Below, piece after piece: positions 13,444-21,845 of a DNA stretch of 64,000 nt (positions are counted from its first letter, which is position 1; each line of letters starts with the position of its first letter). This stretch comes from Millionella massiliensis. GTDB taxonomy: Bacteria > Bacteroidota > Bacteroidia > Bacteroidales > Rikenellaceae. A model generated the notes under the pieces. It had not been told where the DNA came from and did no database searches. It saw only the letters and a list, made by a program, of their open reading frames with translations. The DNA lies in assembly GCF_900104655.1 (NCBI RefSeq), contig NZ_FNWD01000002.1, forward strand, positions 620,001-684,000, written 5' to 3'. A program made the position numbers and the translations under genes.

Positions 13444-15738
13444 TTACTCTTTTATTCGCACCGCACGGACATGCTTCATTCCTACACGTTTTGGAAACCA
13501 TTCGCTACCAGAAATACCACCCGGTATAGTTTCTCGTTGCTCCTCCCCATCAATAGCAGCTTTAGCAACTTTTGTATAATAAAATTCGCTATCTGGGCTG
13601 TTTATATAACCTTGAATCCAAGACCATACCAATCCCGTAAAGTCCCAAAACAACCACCATGGTTTCTTATTCACCTCTTCGAATGAAGGAACAGAAGCAC
13701 TCCAATATCCTTTCCCAACCATTGATTCAGGTTTCCATGACGCATTATCAGTTGTAACAGAAAGTGTCAACGGCTTCAACTCATCAATAGCAGGGAGATA
13801 CCACTTATGTTCAATAATTTTACCGTTTTTATCTCGTTTATTTTTATTATCACAATAACGAGCTGCATAATTGTTATATATAGAATTCACATCAACGCCA
13901 TTAAAAGCACTATTTCCTGCTGCCTCATAGGTTATTATCTTTAAAGTATTTCCCATTCCATCTTGATTAGACGTAAGATCATAGGTGGCATCGTCAAAAT
14001 TGTTTTTAGGAGTAAACGCTTCTACACCTGACCATCCCCACTGGAGCCCCTGAGTCGGTTGATCCGAACTGTAGGGGTCGAGGTTCATCCCGTACTCTTC
14101 ATAGCTCTCCACCCACAAACCGTTGGCCTCGATCATTCCGGCCTGCGTATAGGTATAATAGCGCGAAACTGGATTCTTGACAATTTCAGAACTTTCGGAA
14201 GCAGGCGTGTGCGTCACCTTCAACACCACCGACCGCGAAGTGGTCGACAAATTCTCATCCGTATAGACATAAAAGCGTTGTCGGCTAATATCCGCATACG
14301 TGGCTTTTTGTACGACATTTTCATCCGGATCAATATCGATATTATAAGTATTCATCTTGGACAGACTGATCCAATCCACCGCGGTAAGCGGATTAGTACC
14401 ATCTTCCGCGTCTTTCATAGTGGGGTAGAACTGCAACTCCAATTCACCTGCCGAAGCCGTAATATCGAGATAACGTTTGTCGAAATGGGCGTCCATCCGC
14501 TCGCTCTCCGGCGCGCTGATCTGCAACGCATAGGCTTCATGTACCCGTGAATCGAATGCATCGACCGTAATATCGTTATAGGTCGTTCCATTAATCCCGA
14601 TATTGTAGACATAATTGTGGTCGCGGAGCAGGTTGTAATCATTGGTATTGTTCGCCCCAAGCGCAATCTTGTAAGTAAACGACGCCACATTCTGGGTGAC
14701 CTGGTCACGGATCAGACCCGTCAACACCAAAAACGCAGCATTGGCCGGGGCATAAAGGGTTTTAAACCTCGGATCAGTTCCCGTAGCGTCTGTTTTATCC
14801 TTGATTTCCTGGGCATAATCCCCCGCATCACCTTGCAGATTCCCTATATTAGGGGCGCCTAAACGACCTCCGCGACGATTTTCGTAGGTATAAAATCCAC
14901 CGGCTGCAGCACTAAGATTCGCATCAGTCAACCACGCACCTACACCCACCGTTACCAAATTACTTTCGTCTACATTCGAGGGATAATACGGATTGTAAGG
15001 GTCCGTAATACCCTGATTATCATCGGCATAGTCATGATTTACGCCTTGGTCGGCCACATAGGTGTAACGCGAAAGCCCCTCGACGCTCCAGTTGTTGAAA
15101 TAGAATTCAAGCCCCTCCTTAACCGAGATATTGAAGCTGACTTTTGCTACGGCCCGTTCCATCTTAATACTTAGTGGACGCCCAATCGAAGTGGCCTGCG
15201 TCAAATCGACCTTAAGCGCCGATCCGGTCATCGGCAGACATTTCCGGGGCGAAGAAGCCGTACCCGAACCGTTGTCCTGCAACAACCGGTAGGCATACAA
15301 CTGATTGAAATCATCCAGAGTCGTAACACTCTCAAAATCGTACGAGCCTTCGGCGCCGTCGTATTTACCCACATTGGCCAACACCCACACCGTACATTCT
15401 TTATACTGATCGCCCGTCTGTTTGGGAATAGCCAGCGCACGGTGGGCATCATACGGTTTGTTGGCCTCGAAACCGTCGTGCACAGACTCTTTGTAAAAAC
15501 ACGTTCCATTTTGGTCAAAAGCGAGTATCCATACCGAATAGATCACTTTCTCAATGTCGGAAGCCATGGCCCGCGTAACGACCACCTCTTCGATCTCAGG
15601 TACCGCCATACTCAAATATATCGACTGGCCGTCGCCAATGTCCAAACCATCGGAATCCCGCTTCTGACATGCGCTAAAAAGCGTCAACGCAGCCAAAAAC
15701 AAGCCGGTCCAAATCGCTGTTTTCTTGTTCGTTTTCAT
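13444..15738 (-). CDS. Large fimbrial (tip/adhesin-like) lipoprotein
   Basis: 764 residues from the ATG at 15738, which gives a lipoprotein signal (LFLAALTLFSAC). The N-terminal 400 residues have the look of Bacteroidetes fimbrial accessory proteins: IYSVWILAFDQNGTCFY, then conserved ARAVAKVSFNI-type strands (here MERAVAKVSFNISV) and NYVYNIGIN. The C-terminus from about residue 560 contains HKWYLPAIDELKPL...GYWSASV...HVRAVRIKE, resembling the DUF1566/Lcl fold found on surface adhesins. It is the last gene of the operon, so I infer a tip or adhesin subunit. The 3' 540 bp are clearly more AT-rich than the rest. Confidence 0.75.
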   Translation of the reverse strand: MKTNKKTAIWTGLFLAALTLFSACQKRDSDGLDIGDGQSIYLSMAVPEIEEVVVTRAMASDIEKVIYSVWILAFDQNGTCFYKESVHDGFEANKPYDAHRALAIPKQTGDQYKECTVWVLANVGKYDGAEGSYDFESVTTLDDFNQLYAYRLLQDNGSGTASSPRKCLPMTGSALKVDLTQATSIGRPLSIKMERAVAKVSFNISVKEGLEFYFNNWSVEGLSRYTYVADQGVNHDYADDNQGITDPYNPYYPSNVDESNLVTVGVGAWLTDANLSAAAGGFYTYENRRGGRLGAPNIGNLQGDAGDYAQEIKDKTDATGTDPRFKTLYAPANAAFLVLTGLIRDQVTQNVASFTYKIALGANNTNDYNLLRDHNYVYNIGINGTTYNDITVDAFDSRVHEAYALQISAPESERMDAHFDKRYLDITASAGELELQFYPTMKDAEDGTNPLTAVDWISLSKMNTYNIDIDPDENVVQKATYADISRQRFYVYTDENLSTTSRSVVLKVTHTPASESSEIVKNPVSRYYTYTQAGMIEANGLWVESYEEYGMNLDPYSSDQPTQGLQWGWSGVEAFTPKNNFDDATYDLTSNQDGMGNTLKIITYEAAGNSAFNGVDVNSIYNNYAARYCDNKNKRDKNGKIIEHKWYLPAIDELKPLTLSVTTDNASWKPESMVGKGYWSASVPSFEEVNKKPWWLFWDFTGLVWSWIQGYINSPDSEFYYTKVAKAAIDGEEQRETIPGGISGSEWFPKRVGMKHVRAVRIKE

Positions 15739-15760
15739 ATCCGTACACTTTTGCATATAC

Positions 15761-16837
15761 TTATTCAAAATCGACACCCTCATTCCCCAGATTACCGTCC
15801 TGCCAGTCATCGCTCTGCAGCACCACACTGGCATTGCGCGGTCCGATCACAATGGTGTAAAGGACACCTTTTCCGGCCTGCCAGGGGGACTGTCCGACCA
15901 GCGATATCTCGACCACGTTGTCGATGTAACGATAACCGGGATCGCTTTCTGCCAACCCGTTGTTCAACCGATACGCAATCCGGATCCCGTTACCCGTGAC
16001 ACCCGTACCTTCCGAGGCAGAAAACTGGATCATCTTCTGCGGTACCATAAACAAATCGTAGCCCGCAGCGGTAATATTCACCGCCTCACGCGGCGTCGCT
16101 GCCGTGATACCCGTGTTATTGACCATTCCGGAAGTCAGATTGTAATAGTTCCAACTGTTTTCATCCAACGTCCACGTCGGGGTATCGCTCGGGGTGGCTG
16201 GGAAAGTCAAAGTTCCCTTGTCATGACCCGATATATATAATTCCTTGATATCCACTTTGTATCCATCGGGCACATCATCCGCAAACTTGACCGCGAAGCG
16301 AACGCGGGTCAATGCATGATTAAACTTAAATTTTACCGGATCTTGATTAGCATAGTTATTCAGCGGCTCGGTGACTCCATACAGCAGATCGACCTGCTCG
16401 GGAACGTTTTGAGCCACCTGAAAACTTAACCGAGGAGGCGTTACGGTTTGTTCGGAAACCGTCCCCGCATCGTAGGGATACCACCCGAAGAAGCGAATAC
16501 AGATATTCGGATCCACCGGCCAGTAGACCGGGTTATCGTAATAATAGGTACTGCCACTTCGTGTAACAGCGGTATTGTAGAAGGCCGGTTTATACCCCGC
16601 GTAATAGCTTCCGTCAGGATTGGGTTTGGCGTACCAGGCCGAGACTCCAAAGGCCTTGCCATCCGCCACTTCTGTAATTTCGGTACCTTTTGTCACCGGG
16701 ACGTCGGCCGAGCGAAACTCGATACGACGGTCCGAATTGATGGGCGAGGTGTTGTTCTGTTCCTTGGAGCAGCCGGCAAGCAAAAGGAGCGACGCCACCC
16801 CCACCATAACCGGGAGTCCCATATCTTTTCGTTTCAT
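15761..16837 (-). CDS. Fimbrillin family lipoprotein (second)
   Basis: 358 residues from the ATG at 16837, chosen for the lipoprotein signal VASLLLLAGC. Family traits are the N-terminal strand RRIEFRSADVPVTKG, the helix-strand HALTRVRFAVKF, the MVPQ segment (YDLFMVPQKM) and the C-terminal strands GVLYTIVIG...DDWQDGN, ending in the usual acceptor-like strand. Fimbrillins are exported as lipoproteins, cleaved by an Arg-type protease and assembled by strand exchange. It lies 22 bp before the tip-like gene and is probably a major or minor pilin of the same fimbria. Confidence 0.85.
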   Translation of the reverse strand: MKRKDMGLPVMVGVASLLLLAGCSKEQNNTSPINSDRRIEFRSADVPVTKGTEITEVADGKAFGVSAWYAKPNPDGSYYAGYKPAFYNTAVTRSGSTYYYDNPVYWPVDPNICIRFFGWYPYDAGTVSEQTVTPPRLSFQVAQNVPEQVDLLYGVTEPLNNYANQDPVKFKFNHALTRVRFAVKFADDVPDGYKVDIKELYISGHDKGTLTFPATPSDTPTWTLDENSWNYYNLTSGMVNNTGITAATPREAVNITAAGYDLFMVPQKMIQFSASEGTGVTGNGIRIAYRLNNGLAESDPGYRYIDNVVEISLVGQSPWQAGKGVLYTIVIGPRNASVVLQSDDWQDGNLGNEGVDFE

Positions 16838-17006
16838 GGTAACTTGTTTGACAGTTTGAATAGTGACCGGGAGGGGAACATTCAACCCCGCCCGGCCTAA
16901 ATGTCGGGATAGCTCCTAATAGGGTTTGTCAAAGATGATTTTGGAATTTTGGAGCTAGTCCGGCAAGACAGTACAATTCATTTTACGTTGGAGAACAACG
17001 AATGTA

Positions 17007-18008
17007 CTACTGAGCTTGGATTTCCGACGTTCCACCATCTCCAATTCCTGATACTTCGGGAGCACCAAATACAATCGGTTTCAGACCGGTATCATCCCCT
17101 TCCAGAACGATCGTATAATTGTATCGATTACCTTGTGCCCAGTCAGTAGTAATTTTAGCAGTCAACGTTTTATCTGCCCCTACCTGGAGACCTGCTTCAT
17201 TGAGTACTTGCACTTTGAATGACACGGTAACATTGTTGGTACCTGCGTTTTGCGGAATCACAGCAAAATCAGGGGTTTCACTCGAAGCGTCGCCCATGCC
17301 ACCCGGTTGAATCTGAGTATTTTTAATATCATTAATGGTTGCGGTGAAAGGAGCTCCCTCAGCTACCAGTTCCGATTGGCCCGACCATGCAGTTCCATTG
17401 AAGGTACCTTTAGATGCCACATTATAGAGTTTGAAATCACTGATTTTCACAGTAATTCCGGCAGCGAACTTACTTTTGAATGTTACTTTAACCATCGAGA
17501 GAATATGGCTAAAGTTAAATTTCACCGGTTCTGCATAACTTTCATTAATCTGGCTACTCTCTACAGCGTATTCAGCGTAAATCAAGTCATTCTGAATGTC
17601 AGGTGAAGCCACATAATCAGTTATGGTCAAATGGCCTGAAGTGAGATCTGCAGTAACGGAGCCAGCACCGCCTGCGATTTCCGGAGCATATGCCGCAAAC
17701 TTGTACGATTCACCAGGAGCCCAATAACGAACCGGCGGTTGGTATGTCCACTGACCATCGCTTTTAGAAATCTCAGCGTTTTCAAAGACATGCGTCATAT
17801 TGTCTTTATAACCGGCAAAGACATAGAATTTGTCGAGATTCCCTTTGTTTACTTCAGATACAGTAGCTTTCGAATCAACAGAGTTTCCGACCCATGAAGC
17901 AGCAAAGTCAATCGTCCGCGAAGGTGCCTGTTCGACCGTTTCGGTCTTGCTACAACTTGCCAGAATCGCTGCGACTCCGGCAAGCAGATAAAGTTGTTTT
18001 TTCATCAT
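17007..18008 (-). CDS. Fimbrillin family lipoprotein (first, probable major subunit)
   Basis: 333 residues with lipobox AAILASC. Fimbrillin traits: RTIDFAASW, the core FSHILSMVKVTFKSK, PDFAVIPQNAG, and KITTDWAQGNRYNYTIVLEGDD near the C-terminus. The DNA is somewhat more AT-rich than the flanking accessory genes. Position as the first pilin gene suggests the major stalk subunit, but which of the two pilins dominates cannot be told from sequence. The second fimbrillin starts 169 bp downstream, long enough for an internal control element, though none was recognised. Confidence 0.85.
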   Translation of the reverse strand: MMKKQLYLLAGVAAILASCSKTETVEQAPSRTIDFAASWVGNSVDSKATVSEVNKGNLDKFYVFAGYKDNMTHVFENAEISKSDGQWTYQPPVRYWAPGESYKFAAYAPEIAGGAGSVTADLTSGHLTITDYVASPDIQNDLIYAEYAVESSQINESYAEPVKFNFSHILSMVKVTFKSKFAAGITVKISDFKLYNVASKGTFNGTAWSGQSELVAEGAPFTATINDIKNTQIQPGGMGDASSETPDFAVIPQNAGTNNVTVSFKVQVLNEAGLQVGADKTLTAKITTDWAQGNRYNYTIVLEGDDTGLKPIVFGAPEVSGIGDGGTSEIQAQ

Positions 18009-18058: not shown

Positions 18059-19093
18059 CTATAAAGGCAATTCAATATCTTCATAATCGCCCCACCCGTC
18101 AATATCCACCTCGAAACCGCCGTTCACGGAAGCCTCTTCATCCGTGATTTTCAAGCCGCTGACCGTAATCACACCACCGCGGGGCTGGTCGGCCAACTGA
18201 TCGGTCACATCGAAATCGAAAGTCTTCATCGTTCCGTTGGCCAGCATCACCTCCAGGTTCAACCCGAAACGCGCATCGGCGCGAGTCGTATATTCACCCG
18301 ACGAGGTGCTCGGTACACCAAACGATGTCACCTGGGCTTCGACACCATAGTCCGTCAGTTCGCAGTCGTAGAGCAACGTAGCCACCTCGTCACTGGTGTG
18401 TCCGTCCTGCAGATACACCGCCTGAGCCATCCCCGAGAGTGCCCCACGAGCCAAAGCGACATGCTCGGCTCCTTCGTCAAACTCGTACCGAACCAGATAG
18501 GTATATACCAGCGGACGCATCGTAATCGGAAGGGCAGTGGGCTCGACGGTCTGTTTGGCCTCATGTTCCTCGATCCACTCGCCGTAAAGCATGTCAGGCG
18601 TGTTGATGGTCTGTTCGTCGGCATGGGTCTCGCTGTAGGTGACGCGCGTACGAGTACGGGTCGTTGCGGCAGCCGTCGCCCACGAATTCAAATCATTGAA
18701 TACGATGTAGTGCGTATCGTCGTTGTAAAACAACAACTTCTTGATACCCGGAGTCATCGGCAGCTCGCCACCTTCGGCCGGCAGGTGCTGCTCGGTCGAG
18801 GAGCCGTCTTCGTGGTAGACAAAAGCGGCGATGCCGGTGGCAGCACCGGGACACAGATCTTCGTACTCCTGACGATACTCGTCGGGCCAGTTCTCCTGCC
18901 AGCTCCGACCGTAATCGCGTTCCCATTCGCACTCCCAGGAGGATTGTACCTGCGCTTTGGCGCTTCCTGCATGTGCCGTATGATCGTAACACAAATCCTT
19001 GCGGCAGGAGGTCAGACCGACCAACAAGGCTGCGGCGCATACGGCGCCTACGTGTGTGGACATGTTTTTCATAGTGATAAATCCTGTCTTCAT
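18059..19093 (-). CDS. DUF5119 domain lipoprotein of the fimbrial operon
   Basis: 344 residues from the ATG at 19093, which overlaps the stop of the preceding gene as ATGA (translational coupling); an ATG at 19072 is an alternative. Lipobox VGLTSC, then CYDHTAH and a two-domain beta-rich body typical of DUF5119 proteins, which are found in Mfa-like fimbrial clusters: strands such as THYIVFNDLNSW, TRTRTRVTYSE and a C-terminal DFDVTDQLADQPRGGVITVSGLKI. Probably a membrane anchor or accessory subunit, by analogy with Mfa2/FimB. Confidence 0.8.
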   Translation of the reverse strand: MKTGFITMKNMSTHVGAVCAAALLVGLTSCRKDLCYDHTAHAGSAKAQVQSSWECEWERDYGRSWQENWPDEYRQEYEDLCPGAATGIAAFVYHEDGSSTEQHLPAEGGELPMTPGIKKLLFYNDDTHYIVFNDLNSWATAAATTRTRTRVTYSETHADEQTINTPDMLYGEWIEEHEAKQTVEPTALPITMRPLVYTYLVRYEFDEGAEHVALARGALSGMAQAVYLQDGHTSDEVATLLYDCELTDYGVEAQVTSFGVPSTSSGEYTTRADARFGLNLEVMLANGTMKTFDFDVTDQLADQPRGGVITVSGLKITDEEASVNGGFEVDIDGWGDYEDIELPL

Positions 19094-20379
19094 TTCCCGC
19101 CTCCTTTCGTCTTGTCGGTGTTCCACAGACGCCATGCCAGTGCCAGTTTCAATTTCAGCGGACCGAAGTAGTTCAGGCGACTGGTCTTCTGATAGACGTA
19201 ATGCGTGTCACCCATATAGGATACGGGTTGATATTCCTCGTATTTACTGTGCATGTATCCGATTCCGATACCGGCCTCCAGCGAAAGCCGACGTCCGATA
19301 GGGAACATGTAGCCGTAGCTGAGGCCGACCATCTCGGCTTCACCCTGATAGCCGCGTTTCCCGTTTTCAAGGTCGTACCACGTGTAACCGCCGAACAGAC
19401 CGAGATAGTGGCCGTGCCAGGTATTTTCTTTCTGGCCGAACCACCAGCGTACTTCGGGGCTGATGGTAGCCACCTGATAGTACTTGTGTTTGCGGTCGTT
19501 GTACCACCAGGCCATGTCGCCCTCGAGGTTCACCGTCCAACGGTCGTGGAAACGATACTCTATTTCCAGTGACGGCATCAGAATTGCATCGTAAAGCAGG
19601 TTCGTCTTCAGAGCCAGTCGGTGGTTAGGCTCCACGGCAGTCGAGGAAGCCTGCAATGAAGAGGTCCCTGCAGCGGTTCCCTGAGCGGCTCGTTGGGCTG
19701 CACTCGATGGTGAATCATTGTCGTTAGCATTGGTATTCGTGTCGATACCGGTCTCAGTCCCGGTTGCCGATTGCTTCGACAGATCGTTGTCATCGGCAAG
19801 AGTACAGGTCAACACAAGGGTGCTGTTACGCAACTCCGGAAAGATGTGCTCTTCGATATAGCGATACGGAACGCCGCCTTTCAGATCCATCAACTGCTTT
19901 TTACGACCATCGATAATTTTACCTTCGTCGTCAAAAATCCAGATCGGCGTATTGCGAATGATGTCCACGATTTGGTCGCCATACGGAACATTCGGGTCAG
20001 CTTCGACACGCTGAGCCAAACCGCCCCAATCGATACCGTTGGCTTTGGAGCTAATCACAGAGTCGGGTAGGGTAACCCGGCTGCGGATATACTCCAGCGT
20101 ATTGGCCACACGATTGTGACACAAACGTTCATTCGCATCGGATGCCCCGTCGGGCGATGCGTTACCTTCAATCCGGAACGACGAAACGGAACGTCCGGTA
20201 CCAGCTAACGCTGCACGCAGACGTTCAATCAACTGATCAAGCGTCCGCTGGTTATTCCGAAACGAGGGTTCGAGCGTAGAGTAGCCTCGACGGAAATAGA
20301 TACGGATCGTGTCGACCGTTTGAGCGCTTGCGCACTCACAACAAAAAGCGAGGAGGAAGAGCAGTAGACGGCTTTTCAT
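19090..20379 (-). CDS. DUF3575 outer-membrane protein with OmpA-like N-terminal part, first gene of the fimbrial operon
   Basis: 429 residues, signal peptide LLLFLLAFCCECASA. The N-terminal half resembles an OmpA-type peptidoglycan-binding region (VDTIRIYFRRGYSTLEPSFRNN, FRIEGNASPDGASDANERL). After a Ser/Thr/Asn-rich linker (about 200-245) comes the DUF3575 beta-barrel (HRLALKTNLLYDAILMPSLEIEYRF...). Such proteins head many Bacteroides fimbrial loci and may anchor or export the pilus. It has no promoter in its current upstream orientation; see the invertible segment at 20477-20630. Confidence 0.85.
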   Translation of the reverse strand: MKSRLLLFLLAFCCECASAQTVDTIRIYFRRGYSTLEPSFRNNQRTLDQLIERLRAALAGTGRSVSSFRIEGNASPDGASDANERLCHNRVANTLEYIRSRVTLPDSVISSKANGIDWGGLAQRVEADPNVPYGDQIVDIIRNTPIWIFDDEGKIIDGRKKQLMDLKGGVPYRYIEEHIFPELRNSTLVLTCTLADDNDLSKQSATGTETGIDTNTNANDNDSPSSAAQRAAQGTAAGTSSLQASSTAVEPNHRLALKTNLLYDAILMPSLEIEYRFHDRWTVNLEGDMAWWYNDRKHKYYQVATISPEVRWWFGQKENTWHGHYLGLFGGYTWYDLENGKRGYQGEAEMVGLSYGYMFPIGRRLSLEAGIGIGYMHSKYEEYQPVSYMGDTHYVYQKTSRLNYFGPLKLKLALAWRLWNTDKTKGGGK

Positions 20380-20476
20380 GTCTCTATATATTTCTATAAA
20401 CTGTTAAATCCAGCCAAGAAAATCCAAATAAGTATTTGTTTATAAATACTTTAACCGATCAATCTAAGCAGAATAT

Positions 20477-20630
20477 TCGTTGGTTAATTCTTTAGTGATG
20501 AAAAAAGCAGGTTATAAACCTATAGTAGAATGAGATAGGCCACACATAATTATTTGTAAAATAAATTTTTATACAGGAATATTTGTATATATCACCAACA
20601 GTTACTACCTTAGCATTTGTAAACCAACGA
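20477..20630. promoter_or_regulatory. Candidate invertible promoter segment for the fimbrial operon
   Basis: TCGTTGGTT (20477-20485) and its exact complement AACCAACGA (20622-20630) enclose 136 bp. Inside, close to the right repeat, is a full promoter reading rightward, away from the fimbrial genes. Inversion would place it 115 bp upstream of the first fimbrial gene, reading into it. The repeat match is only 9 bp, short for a serine-invertase site, so the exact recombination boundaries are uncertain. Confidence 0.55.
20582..20613 (+). promoter_or_regulatory. Promoter inside the candidate invertible segment (OFF orientation)
   Basis: TTTG (20582-20585), a 20-nt spacer, then TACCTTAG (20606-20613): a near-consensus Bacteroidetes promoter. 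It points to the right, toward non-coding DNA and antisense to the invertase. The opposite strand of the segment has no comparable promoter. Confidence 0.65.
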
Positions 20631-20941
20631 TTTAATCAACGTATTATCAGACTACAAAAAAGAATATTCTTAAAAACAGATAGCGCATCTTATCATATAA
20701 ACAACTATAAATCAACTTATTAATTTAATATATAATTTATAACACTATAATATCACAATTTAAAACATTACATAAAAATTATAATTGCAACACATCATAG
20801 AACACTACAACTCTCGACTGAAACAGATGTACAGTCCTTATAACAACGTCACACTAATAAACTAATTATCAGTTATATATAAATCACTAATATAACGTCA
20901 TACATATTTTAAAAAATTAAAATCTTAAAATACAACTAAAT

Positions 20942-20989
20942 AATTTTCGATTTTCAGATAAAAAATAAAGATAAAAGACATCGAAAATT
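20942..20989. repeat. 10-bp inverted repeat
   Basis: AATTTTCGAT (20942-20951) and ATCGAAAATT (20980-20989) are perfect complements around a 28-bp AT-rich centre. Could be an operator, a second recombination site or chance in AT-rich DNA. Confidence 0.4.
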
Positions 20990-21144
20990 TCAGAACACCC
21001 CCAACATTACACATCCCTCCACGAATCAAAAAGAAACAAATCGCACAACACCCAATCCACCACACACCATATCAAAAGAATATCATACTACGCCAAGCCA
21101 CAACAACCAACTACCATCACTCATTATACCTATCCTATATAAAA

Positions 21145-21178
21145 GCAAAGCGGGAATCTCTTGGGATTCCCGCTTTGC
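21145..21178 (-). terminator. Terminator of the invertase gene
   Basis: A perfect 14-bp inverted repeat GCAAAGCGGGAATC/GATTCCCGCTTTGC with a 6-nt loop, followed on the minus strand by TTTTATAT, 14 bp after the invertase stop. It would also shield the invertase from transcription arising on the other side. Confidence 0.88.
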
Positions 21179-21191
21179 GATACCATTATTA

Positions 21192-21845
21192 CTAATCCTT
21201 TTTAAACCCAGCTATACGTCTCGCCTCCTTGGCTCGCAGCGCCCGACCGACAGAAGGGTACATCTCTCGGAATTTTGCAAAGGTATCACGCGAAACTTCA
21301 AAGCGACGGCATATATCGGTAATCGATTTATCGTTGTTCAACATCCTCACCACAGCCGGACGATTCTGGATCAACACATTCATTTTCGTAAAACTGCCTT
21401 TCCGCCGCCCCAGGATTTTCCCTTCAGCCTTACGGAGAGCCAGTGCCTCCTTCGTTCGCATCGAAATCAAATTACGCTCAATTTCAGCCACAAGTCCGAA
21501 TGCAAAACAAAGCACCTTACTGTTAATCGTATTATCAAAAGAGTACCCCTCTTTGGTCGTGTAAAGATTGATTTCGCGATTCAGACACTTTCCCATAATC
21601 GCCATAATATCAGTCAACGTTCGACTCAGACGGGAGATCTCCGTCACAATCAGAGTATCCCCTTTACGCATTCGCTTCAACAAAGTCCCCAGTTTACGAT
21701 CCTTTTCCTTCTTTTTGCCACTGACGACCTCCGTAACCCATGCGTCTATTTTAATGTTTCGACTCTCCGCAAAGCGTTGAATTTCGTCCTGCTGGTTAGC
21801 CAGATTCTGCCGTTCCGTACTAACCCTCAAATAACCCACAACCAT
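21192..21845 (-). CDS. Serine site-specific recombinase, Mpi/Hin-like DNA invertase
   Basis: 217 residues from the ATG at 21845, chosen because the resolvase fold starts there (MVVGYLRVSTERQ); ATGs at 21854 and 21884 are possible. The nucleophile is the Ser of GYLRVST (Ser9); the catalytic Arg region is VTEISRLSRT, and helix E follows (FGLVAEIERNLISMRTKEAL). The C-terminus has a helix-turn-helix (KSITDICRRFEVSRDTFAKF). Size and layout match Bacteroides Mpi-type invertases, which flip promoters of capsule and surface operons. It lies upstream of the fimbrial operon in the same orientation and has its own terminator. Confidence 0.9.
   Translation of the reverse strand: MVVGYLRVSTERQNLANQQDEIQRFAESRNIKIDAWVTEVVSGKKKEKDRKLGTLLKRMRKGDTLIVTEISRLSRTLTDIMAIMGKCLNREINLYTTKEGYSFDNTINSKVLCFAFGLVAEIERNLISMRTKEALALRKAEGKILGRRKGSFTKMNVLIQNRPAVVRMLNNDKSITDICRRFEVSRDTFAKFREMYPSVGRALRAKEARRIAGFKKD

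What the first reader, a model, noticed from the sequence alone, without database searches (positions are those of the whole stretch)
20477..21845. Probable phase-variable fimbriae, switch currently OFF
A Mpi-type serine invertase gene lies upstream of a fimbrial operon that has no promoter facing it. Between them, TCGTTGGTT/AACCAACGA inverted repeats enclose 136 bp with a full promoter (TTTG-N20-TACCTTAG) pointing away from the operon. Inversion would put it 115 bp upstream of the first gene, reading in. Mpi-type invertases switch surface operons this way in Bacteroides; linking this enzyme to this site is inference.
Basis: partly seen in the sequence, partly recalled or inferred. Interest (0 to 1): 0.8.

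Follow-up and report, generated by a model that had tools for sequence, protein, structure and literature searches.

The report
Invertible promoter switch for fimbriae
A gut bacterium probably of the genus Rikenella carries a short flippable piece of DNA with a promoter that can turn a set of surface-fimbria genes on or off, next to the enzyme that very likely flips it; this is a well-preserved new example of a known type of switch, found here in the OFF position.

Summary
The inverted repeats TCGTTGGTT (20477-20485) and AACCAACGA (20622-20630) enclose 136 bp, with a Bacteroidota promoter pointing away from a five-gene fimbrial operon (DUF3575-DUF5119-two fimbrillins-DUF4906). A serine recombinase gene lies upstream. 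Alone, a 9-bp repeat in this AT-rich gap is weak evidence. Relatives decide it. (1) The order invertase, inverted repeats, fimbrial operon recurs in other Rikenellaceae genera and in Bacteroides/Phocaeicola, with the same GTTGGTT/GTTCGTT core. (2) The -7 box lies 8 nt from the core in nearly all of them, window included. (3) Orthologous switches are seen in both orientations (mostly OFF; G198, G199 and G145 ON). (4) Two nearly identical 11-kb loci from different Bacteroidaceae species differ only by a 12-bp unit moved between the two repeats; two inversions with the crossover inside CGTT reproduce this exactly. The enzyme is close to Mpi but scores just below NCBI's Mpi cut-off (263 vs 272 bits). 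Its exact site occurs as an inverted pair at that spacing once in this genome, so it looks like a local switch, not a master switch. Inversion in this strain itself was not observed. Verdict: new member of a known kind.

The parts
21192..21845 (-). Serine recombinase (Mpi-like DNA invertase), 217 aa, start ATG 21845
   Evidence: Pfam Resolvase 7.4e-37; NCBIfam Mpi family 1.5e-78, 263.2 bits vs cut-off 272; PDB DNA invertase 4m6f/3uj3 ~1e-13, catalytic-serine motif YLRVST
21145..21178 (-). Intrinsic terminator (14-bp stem, then TTTTATA) ending the invertase transcript before the operon
   Evidence: -25.6 kcal/mol, z -5.4
20622..20630 (-). Right inverted repeat AACCAACGA (recombination site core)
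   Evidence: core shared with relatives
20634..20641 (-). Degenerate second unit AATCAACG, 12 bp out from the right core; relatives carry tandem 12-bp units here
   Evidence: sequence compared with L122, L004
20477..20485 (+). Left inverted repeat TCGTTGGTT (recombination site core)
20486..20621 (.). Invertible segment, 136 bp
   Evidence: spacer of 122-157 bp in relatives
20582..20613 (+). Promoter TTTG-N20-TACCTTAG, in OFF orientation; -7 box ends 8 nt before AACCAACG
   Evidence: same 8-nt distance in relatives
19090..20379 (-). Operon gene 1, DUF3575 protein
18059..19135 (-). Operon gene 2, DUF5119 lipoprotein (probable anchor-type subunit)
17007..18008 (-). Operon gene 3, fimbrillin-like (Mfa_like_1) lipoprotein
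15761..16885 (-). Operon gene 4, fimbrillin-like (Mfa_like_1) lipoprotein
13444..15834 (-). Operon gene 5, DUF4906/FimA-like protein (probable tip-type subunit)

Best explanation
It is a promoter inverton. The neighbouring Mpi-like serine invertase recombines the two TCGTTGGTT cores and reversibly flips the segment between them. In the sequenced state the promoter fires toward the invertase terminator and the operon is silent (OFF). After inversion the promoter reads into DUF3575 and the type V (fimbrillin) pilus operon, with transcription starting at or in the proximal repeat about 110 nt before the first ATG (ON). Shown: anatomy, conservation, both orientations in orthologous loci, and past inversion at this class of site in relatives. 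Inferred: that this enzyme does it here, that the promoter is active, and that fimbriae are produced.
For: Order INV-IR-DUF3575-DUF5119-FIM-DUF4906 in L122-L125 and INV-IR-DUF3575 in L003-L007, L064, L066, L069, L078. -7 box 8 nt from the [A/T]AC[C/G]AAC core in nearly all. ON in L122, L125 and L146; OFF in the window, L003-L007, L120, L123, L124, L129-L131. L004 vs L005: 11,221 aligned bases, 0 mismatches, only a 12-bp unit moved from one repeat to the other; reproduced exactly by two inversions with the crossover within CGTT, not at other offsets; L006 vs L007 likewise. In 268 family genomes the repeat pair is found in 12 of about 52 with a strong invertase homologue vs 6 of 216 without (Fisher p 7e-6), while the reversed control pattern shows no such link (p 0.54). 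Published TSS inside the proximal repeat of a comparable Bacteroides intestinalis switch (PMC8375218).
Against: No reads or second strain of this species were available, so inversion here is not seen. The perfect repeat is only 9 bp. The -7 box has one mismatch. Some close invertase homologues have no DUF3575 operon beside them, so enzyme and site are not always paired locally.
Confidence: 0.9

Rival explanations
1. The segment is an inverton, but another recombinase in the genome flips it, or the local enzyme acts mainly elsewhere.
For: A second serine recombinase lies at G000:C1:1255307 (31% identity). In G145 and G189 similar sites lie far from the invertase gene, so action at a distance is possible.
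Against: The invertase is the syntenic neighbour of the same site in several genera; the pair of sites is linked to this enzyme family across genomes; the other enzyme is distant.
Confidence: 0.07
2. Chance repeat in AT-rich intergenic DNA with a chance promoter match; no switch.
For: A 9-bp repeat at this spacing arises in 42% of shuffles.
Against: G+C-containing core P 0.0055; same core, same promoter distance, same synteny and both orientations in relatives; exact inversion traces.
Confidence: 0.02
3. A relic switch: the left site is a single 9-bp core and the right second unit is degenerate, so the switch could now be locked OFF.
For: Relatives often carry two or three 12-bp units per site; the window has one perfect pair plus a degenerate unit.
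Against: The invertase gene is intact, and other relatives also have single-unit sites, such as the left site of L004.
Confidence: 0.06

Closest known systems
Mpi master DNA invertase and its invertible promoters (Bacteroides fragilis)
   Same: Mpi-like serine recombinase; short inverted repeats around a promoter of TAnnTTTG type; controls surface structures
   Different: Site TCGTTGGTT instead of ARACGTTCGTN (as quoted in PMC8375218); the exact pair occurs once in the genome, whereas Mpi inverts 13 regions (PMC4747536); scores just under the NCBI Mpi cut-off
Invertible capsule promoters of Bacteroides intestinalis (10-bp repeat GTTCGTTTAA; PMC8375218)
   Same: Related core GTTCGTT/GTTGGTT, spacer of similar size, TSS expected in the proximal repeat, Mpi homologues encoded
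   Different: They control several capsule loci; here a single fimbrial operon
Invertons near fimbrillin genes in gut Bacteroidota (PMC11892184)
   Same: Promoter inverton placed to drive fimbrillin-family genes
   Different: The text read did not single out a DUF3575-led operon with an adjacent serine invertase
E. coli fim switch (fimS)
   Same: Works alike: promoter inversion controls fimbriae
   Different: Unrelated: tyrosine recombinases FimB/FimE, chaperone-usher pili (own knowledge)

Membership tests
Mpi-family serine DNA invertase | Serine recombinase catalytic domain | tested here: met
   Pfam Resolvase 127 bits, cut-off 23.3; YLRVST motif aligned with DNA invertases and gamma-delta resolvase
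Mpi-family serine DNA invertase | NCBIfam NF009949 (Mpi family equivalog) score at or above the curated cut-off | tested here: not met
   263.2 bits vs 272, E 1.5e-78, profile 1-193 of 203: close homologue, formally just outside
Mpi-family serine DNA invertase | Published repeat ARACGTTCGTN at its sites | tested here: not met
   Core here is TCGTTGGTT; relatives mix GTTGGTT and GTTCGTT units in one site
Mpi-family serine DNA invertase | Master role: inverts many sites in one genome | tested here: inconclusive
   The exact paired site occurs once; two looser GTTCGTT pairs involve coding sequence; more divergent sites or other spacings were not searched
Promoter inverton | Promoter between inverted repeats, upstream of and able to face an operon | tested here: met
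Promoter inverton | Both orientations observed | tested here: inconclusive
   Both seen among orthologous loci of relatives, not within this species
Type V (fimbrillin) pilus operon | Fimbrillin-family lipoprotein subunits in one operon | tested here: met
   Mfa_like_1 twice, DUF5119, DUF4906/FimA; lipobox in four of five proteins
Type V (fimbrillin) pilus operon | Assembled pili on the surface | not testable with these tools
   needs microscopy or pull-down

The most novel reading that the evidence does not exclude
The OFF orientation is not passive: the promoter then fires toward the invertase gene, and antisense RNA through the invertase 3' end lowers invertase level, stabilising OFF. In L003-L007 the switch begins about 20-50 bp after the invertase reading frame with little room for a terminator, and in the window the hairpin at 21145-21178 has a U-tract only on the invertase strand. 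This would fit the excess of OFF states in assemblies.
Probability: 0.1. Interest if true: 0.6.

Novelty: new member of a known kind. Interest (0 to 1): 0.36.

Why it matters
It adds a well-supported, apparently locally controlled fimbrial switch in Rikenellaceae, and shows that this module (invertase, repeats, DUF3575-led fimbrial operon) is conserved across genera and is nearly identical in three Bacteroidaceae species. The 12-bp unit exchange maps the crossover to CGTT from genome sequences alone, which gives a direct handle for experiments on the site.

Tried and rejected
Same-species contigs in IMG/VR and plasmid copies of the Bacteroides locus: no match. Other sites in this genome: the exact pair is unique; the GTTCGTT pair at G000:C1:1208857 begins inside a 442-aa reading frame, and the one at 2164246 overlaps reading frames, so both were rejected as invertons. 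The 65%-identical paralogous operon (DUF3575 gene at G000:C1:252498-253814) has no GTTSGTT core in the 900 bp upstream and one promoter-like site facing in. L003 to L004 could not be explained by inversions alone; L003 differs from L005 by 2 bases. The genome-wide count of the site pattern is not above its control; only its link with the invertase is informative. The MAFFT alignment of the invertible segments was too divergent to use beyond the cores.

Full report
Where it is. The window is G000:C1:620001-684000 of a 2.89-Mb genome. The same-genus genome G002 has a contig of the same length (2,693,782) as that of Rikenella microfusus DSM 15922, and the two yield the same locus, so the genus is most likely Rikenella (Rikenellaceae, Bacteroidales).

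Observation. The repeats, the spacer of 136 bp and the promoter are as described. The promoter is TTTG-N20-TACCTTAG, one mismatch from the -7 consensus TAnnTTTG, on the + strand; the operon is on the - strand. No comparable match faces the operon in 20380-21191. In shuffles, a 9-bp repeat at this spacing is common (42%), one with at least 4 G/C is rare (0.55%), and a promoter of this quality within 136 bp has P 0.045. In silico inversion places the -7 box 115 bp before the ATG, by hand count. A strong terminator for the invertase lies at 21145-21178, so the operon is insulated from invertase transcription.

Genes. The upstream gene is a serine recombinase: Pfam Resolvase, NCBIfam Mpi family at 263.2 bits against a cut-off of 272, PDB DNA invertases around 1e-13. 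The operon is DUF3575, DUF5119, two Mfa_like_1 fimbrillins and a DUF4906/FimA-like protein; four of the five have a lipobox, as expected for type V pilus subunits.

Relatives. Of 268 family genomes 104 have a homologue of the enzyme at E up to 0.001. The gene order INV-[IR]-DUF3575-DUF5119-FIM-DUF4906 recurs in L122, L123, L124 and L125, and INV-[IR]-DUF3575 in L003-L007 (Bacteroides/Phocaeicola), L064, L066, L069 and L078. Cores are GTTGGTT or GTTCGTT, often as tandem 12-bp units. The -7 box ends 8 nt before the core in the window, L003-L007, L064, L066, L067 and L069, and by eye in L124 and L130; it is one base closer in L129; in L131 and L035 the distance is 20 nt, that is 8 + 12. In the window the junction reads TACCTTAG-CATTTGTA-AACCAACGATTTAATCAAC; in L122 it reads TATATTTG-CATTTGTA-AACCAACGATTTAACCAAC but faces the operon.

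Orientation. ON: L122 (G199), L125 (G198) and, with the DUF3575 gene recognised by eye, L146 (G145, switch 24 kb from its invertase). OFF: window, L003-L007, L120, L123, L124, L129, L130, L131, L080, L085, L086. Both states therefore exist among orthologous loci.

Traces of inversion. L004 and L005 come from different species, yet over 11,221 aligned bases they have no mismatch and differ only by 24 gap bases: one 12-bp unit has moved from the left repeat to the right. Two inversions, the second between misaligned units, with the crossover anywhere after C and up to the end of CGTT in CGTT[CG]GTT, turn one into the other exactly; other crossover offsets fail. L006 and L007 show the same change, also solved by two inversions. 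This is strong evidence that sites of this type recombine in nature, although an assembly made from a mixed population cannot be excluded as the source of an arrangement; that too would need inversion.

Link of enzyme and site. CGTTGGTTW-N120-150-AACCAAC occurs in 12 of about 52 family genomes with a strong homologue (E below 1e-40, my count) and in 6 of 216 without (Fisher p 6.7e-6). The reversed control pattern is not linked (p 0.54, computed with 50 such genomes). The total number of matches is not above the control, so only the link is informative. Genomes are related, so p is approximate. In a tree of 74 invertases, those beside a fimbrial operon cluster (8 changes vs 15.5 in shuffles) but are not one clade; the bootstrap had not settled.

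Mechanism. The best reading is a reversible promoter inversion by the local enzyme, currently OFF. The start site would fall in or beside the proximal repeat, as mapped by RNA-seq in B. intestinalis (PMC8375218). Known facts used: Mpi inverts 13 regions in B. fragilis (PMC4747536), and fimbrillin genes are enriched near invertons (PMC11892184). In this genome the exact paired site is unique, so the switch looks local; a wider search for divergent sites was not done.

Limits. No reads, second strain or expression data of this species were available. Promoter activity, enzyme action and pilus production are inferred.

Noticed in passing
window 18981-19623 and G000:C1 about 252386-253028 (L034 1389-2031): A 643-bp tract spanning the DUF3575/DUF5119 junction is 97.2% identical to a paralogous fimbrial operon that is otherwise about 70% alike, which suggests gene conversion.
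   Followed up: partly
L003, L004, L005: The 11.2-kb fimbrial locus is 99.8-99.98% identical in genomes named Bacteroides propionicigenes, Phocaeicola coprocola and Bacteroides cutis: recent transfer, or misnamed or closely related genomes.
   Followed up: no
L012, L013, L015, L016, L018, L019, L021: Related Rikenella invertases have a perfect 10-24 bp inverted repeat (CGTTCGTTTA or AACGTTCGATTAA/AACCGTTCGATTAA, spacer 142-153) upstream of the invertase gene rather than downstream.
   Followed up: no
L081 (G200:C5:192502-192656): A TCGTTGGTT switch lies just upstream of an invertase gene with its promoter-like site facing the invertase: possible self-regulating invertase.
   Followed up: no
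L147 (G189:C1:519984-520146): A tandem-unit inverted repeat lies before a DUF3575-like gene (by eye) with no invertase gene within 1.5 kb, so related enzymes may act at a distance.
   Followed up: partly
L002/L027 (R. microfusus) upstream of the DUF3575 gene: A long inverted repeat with a different core (TTCTTTTAAACGTTCGGTTTTT) flanks a segment with TACCTTTG facing away from the gene: another probable switch in the OFF state.
   Followed up: no
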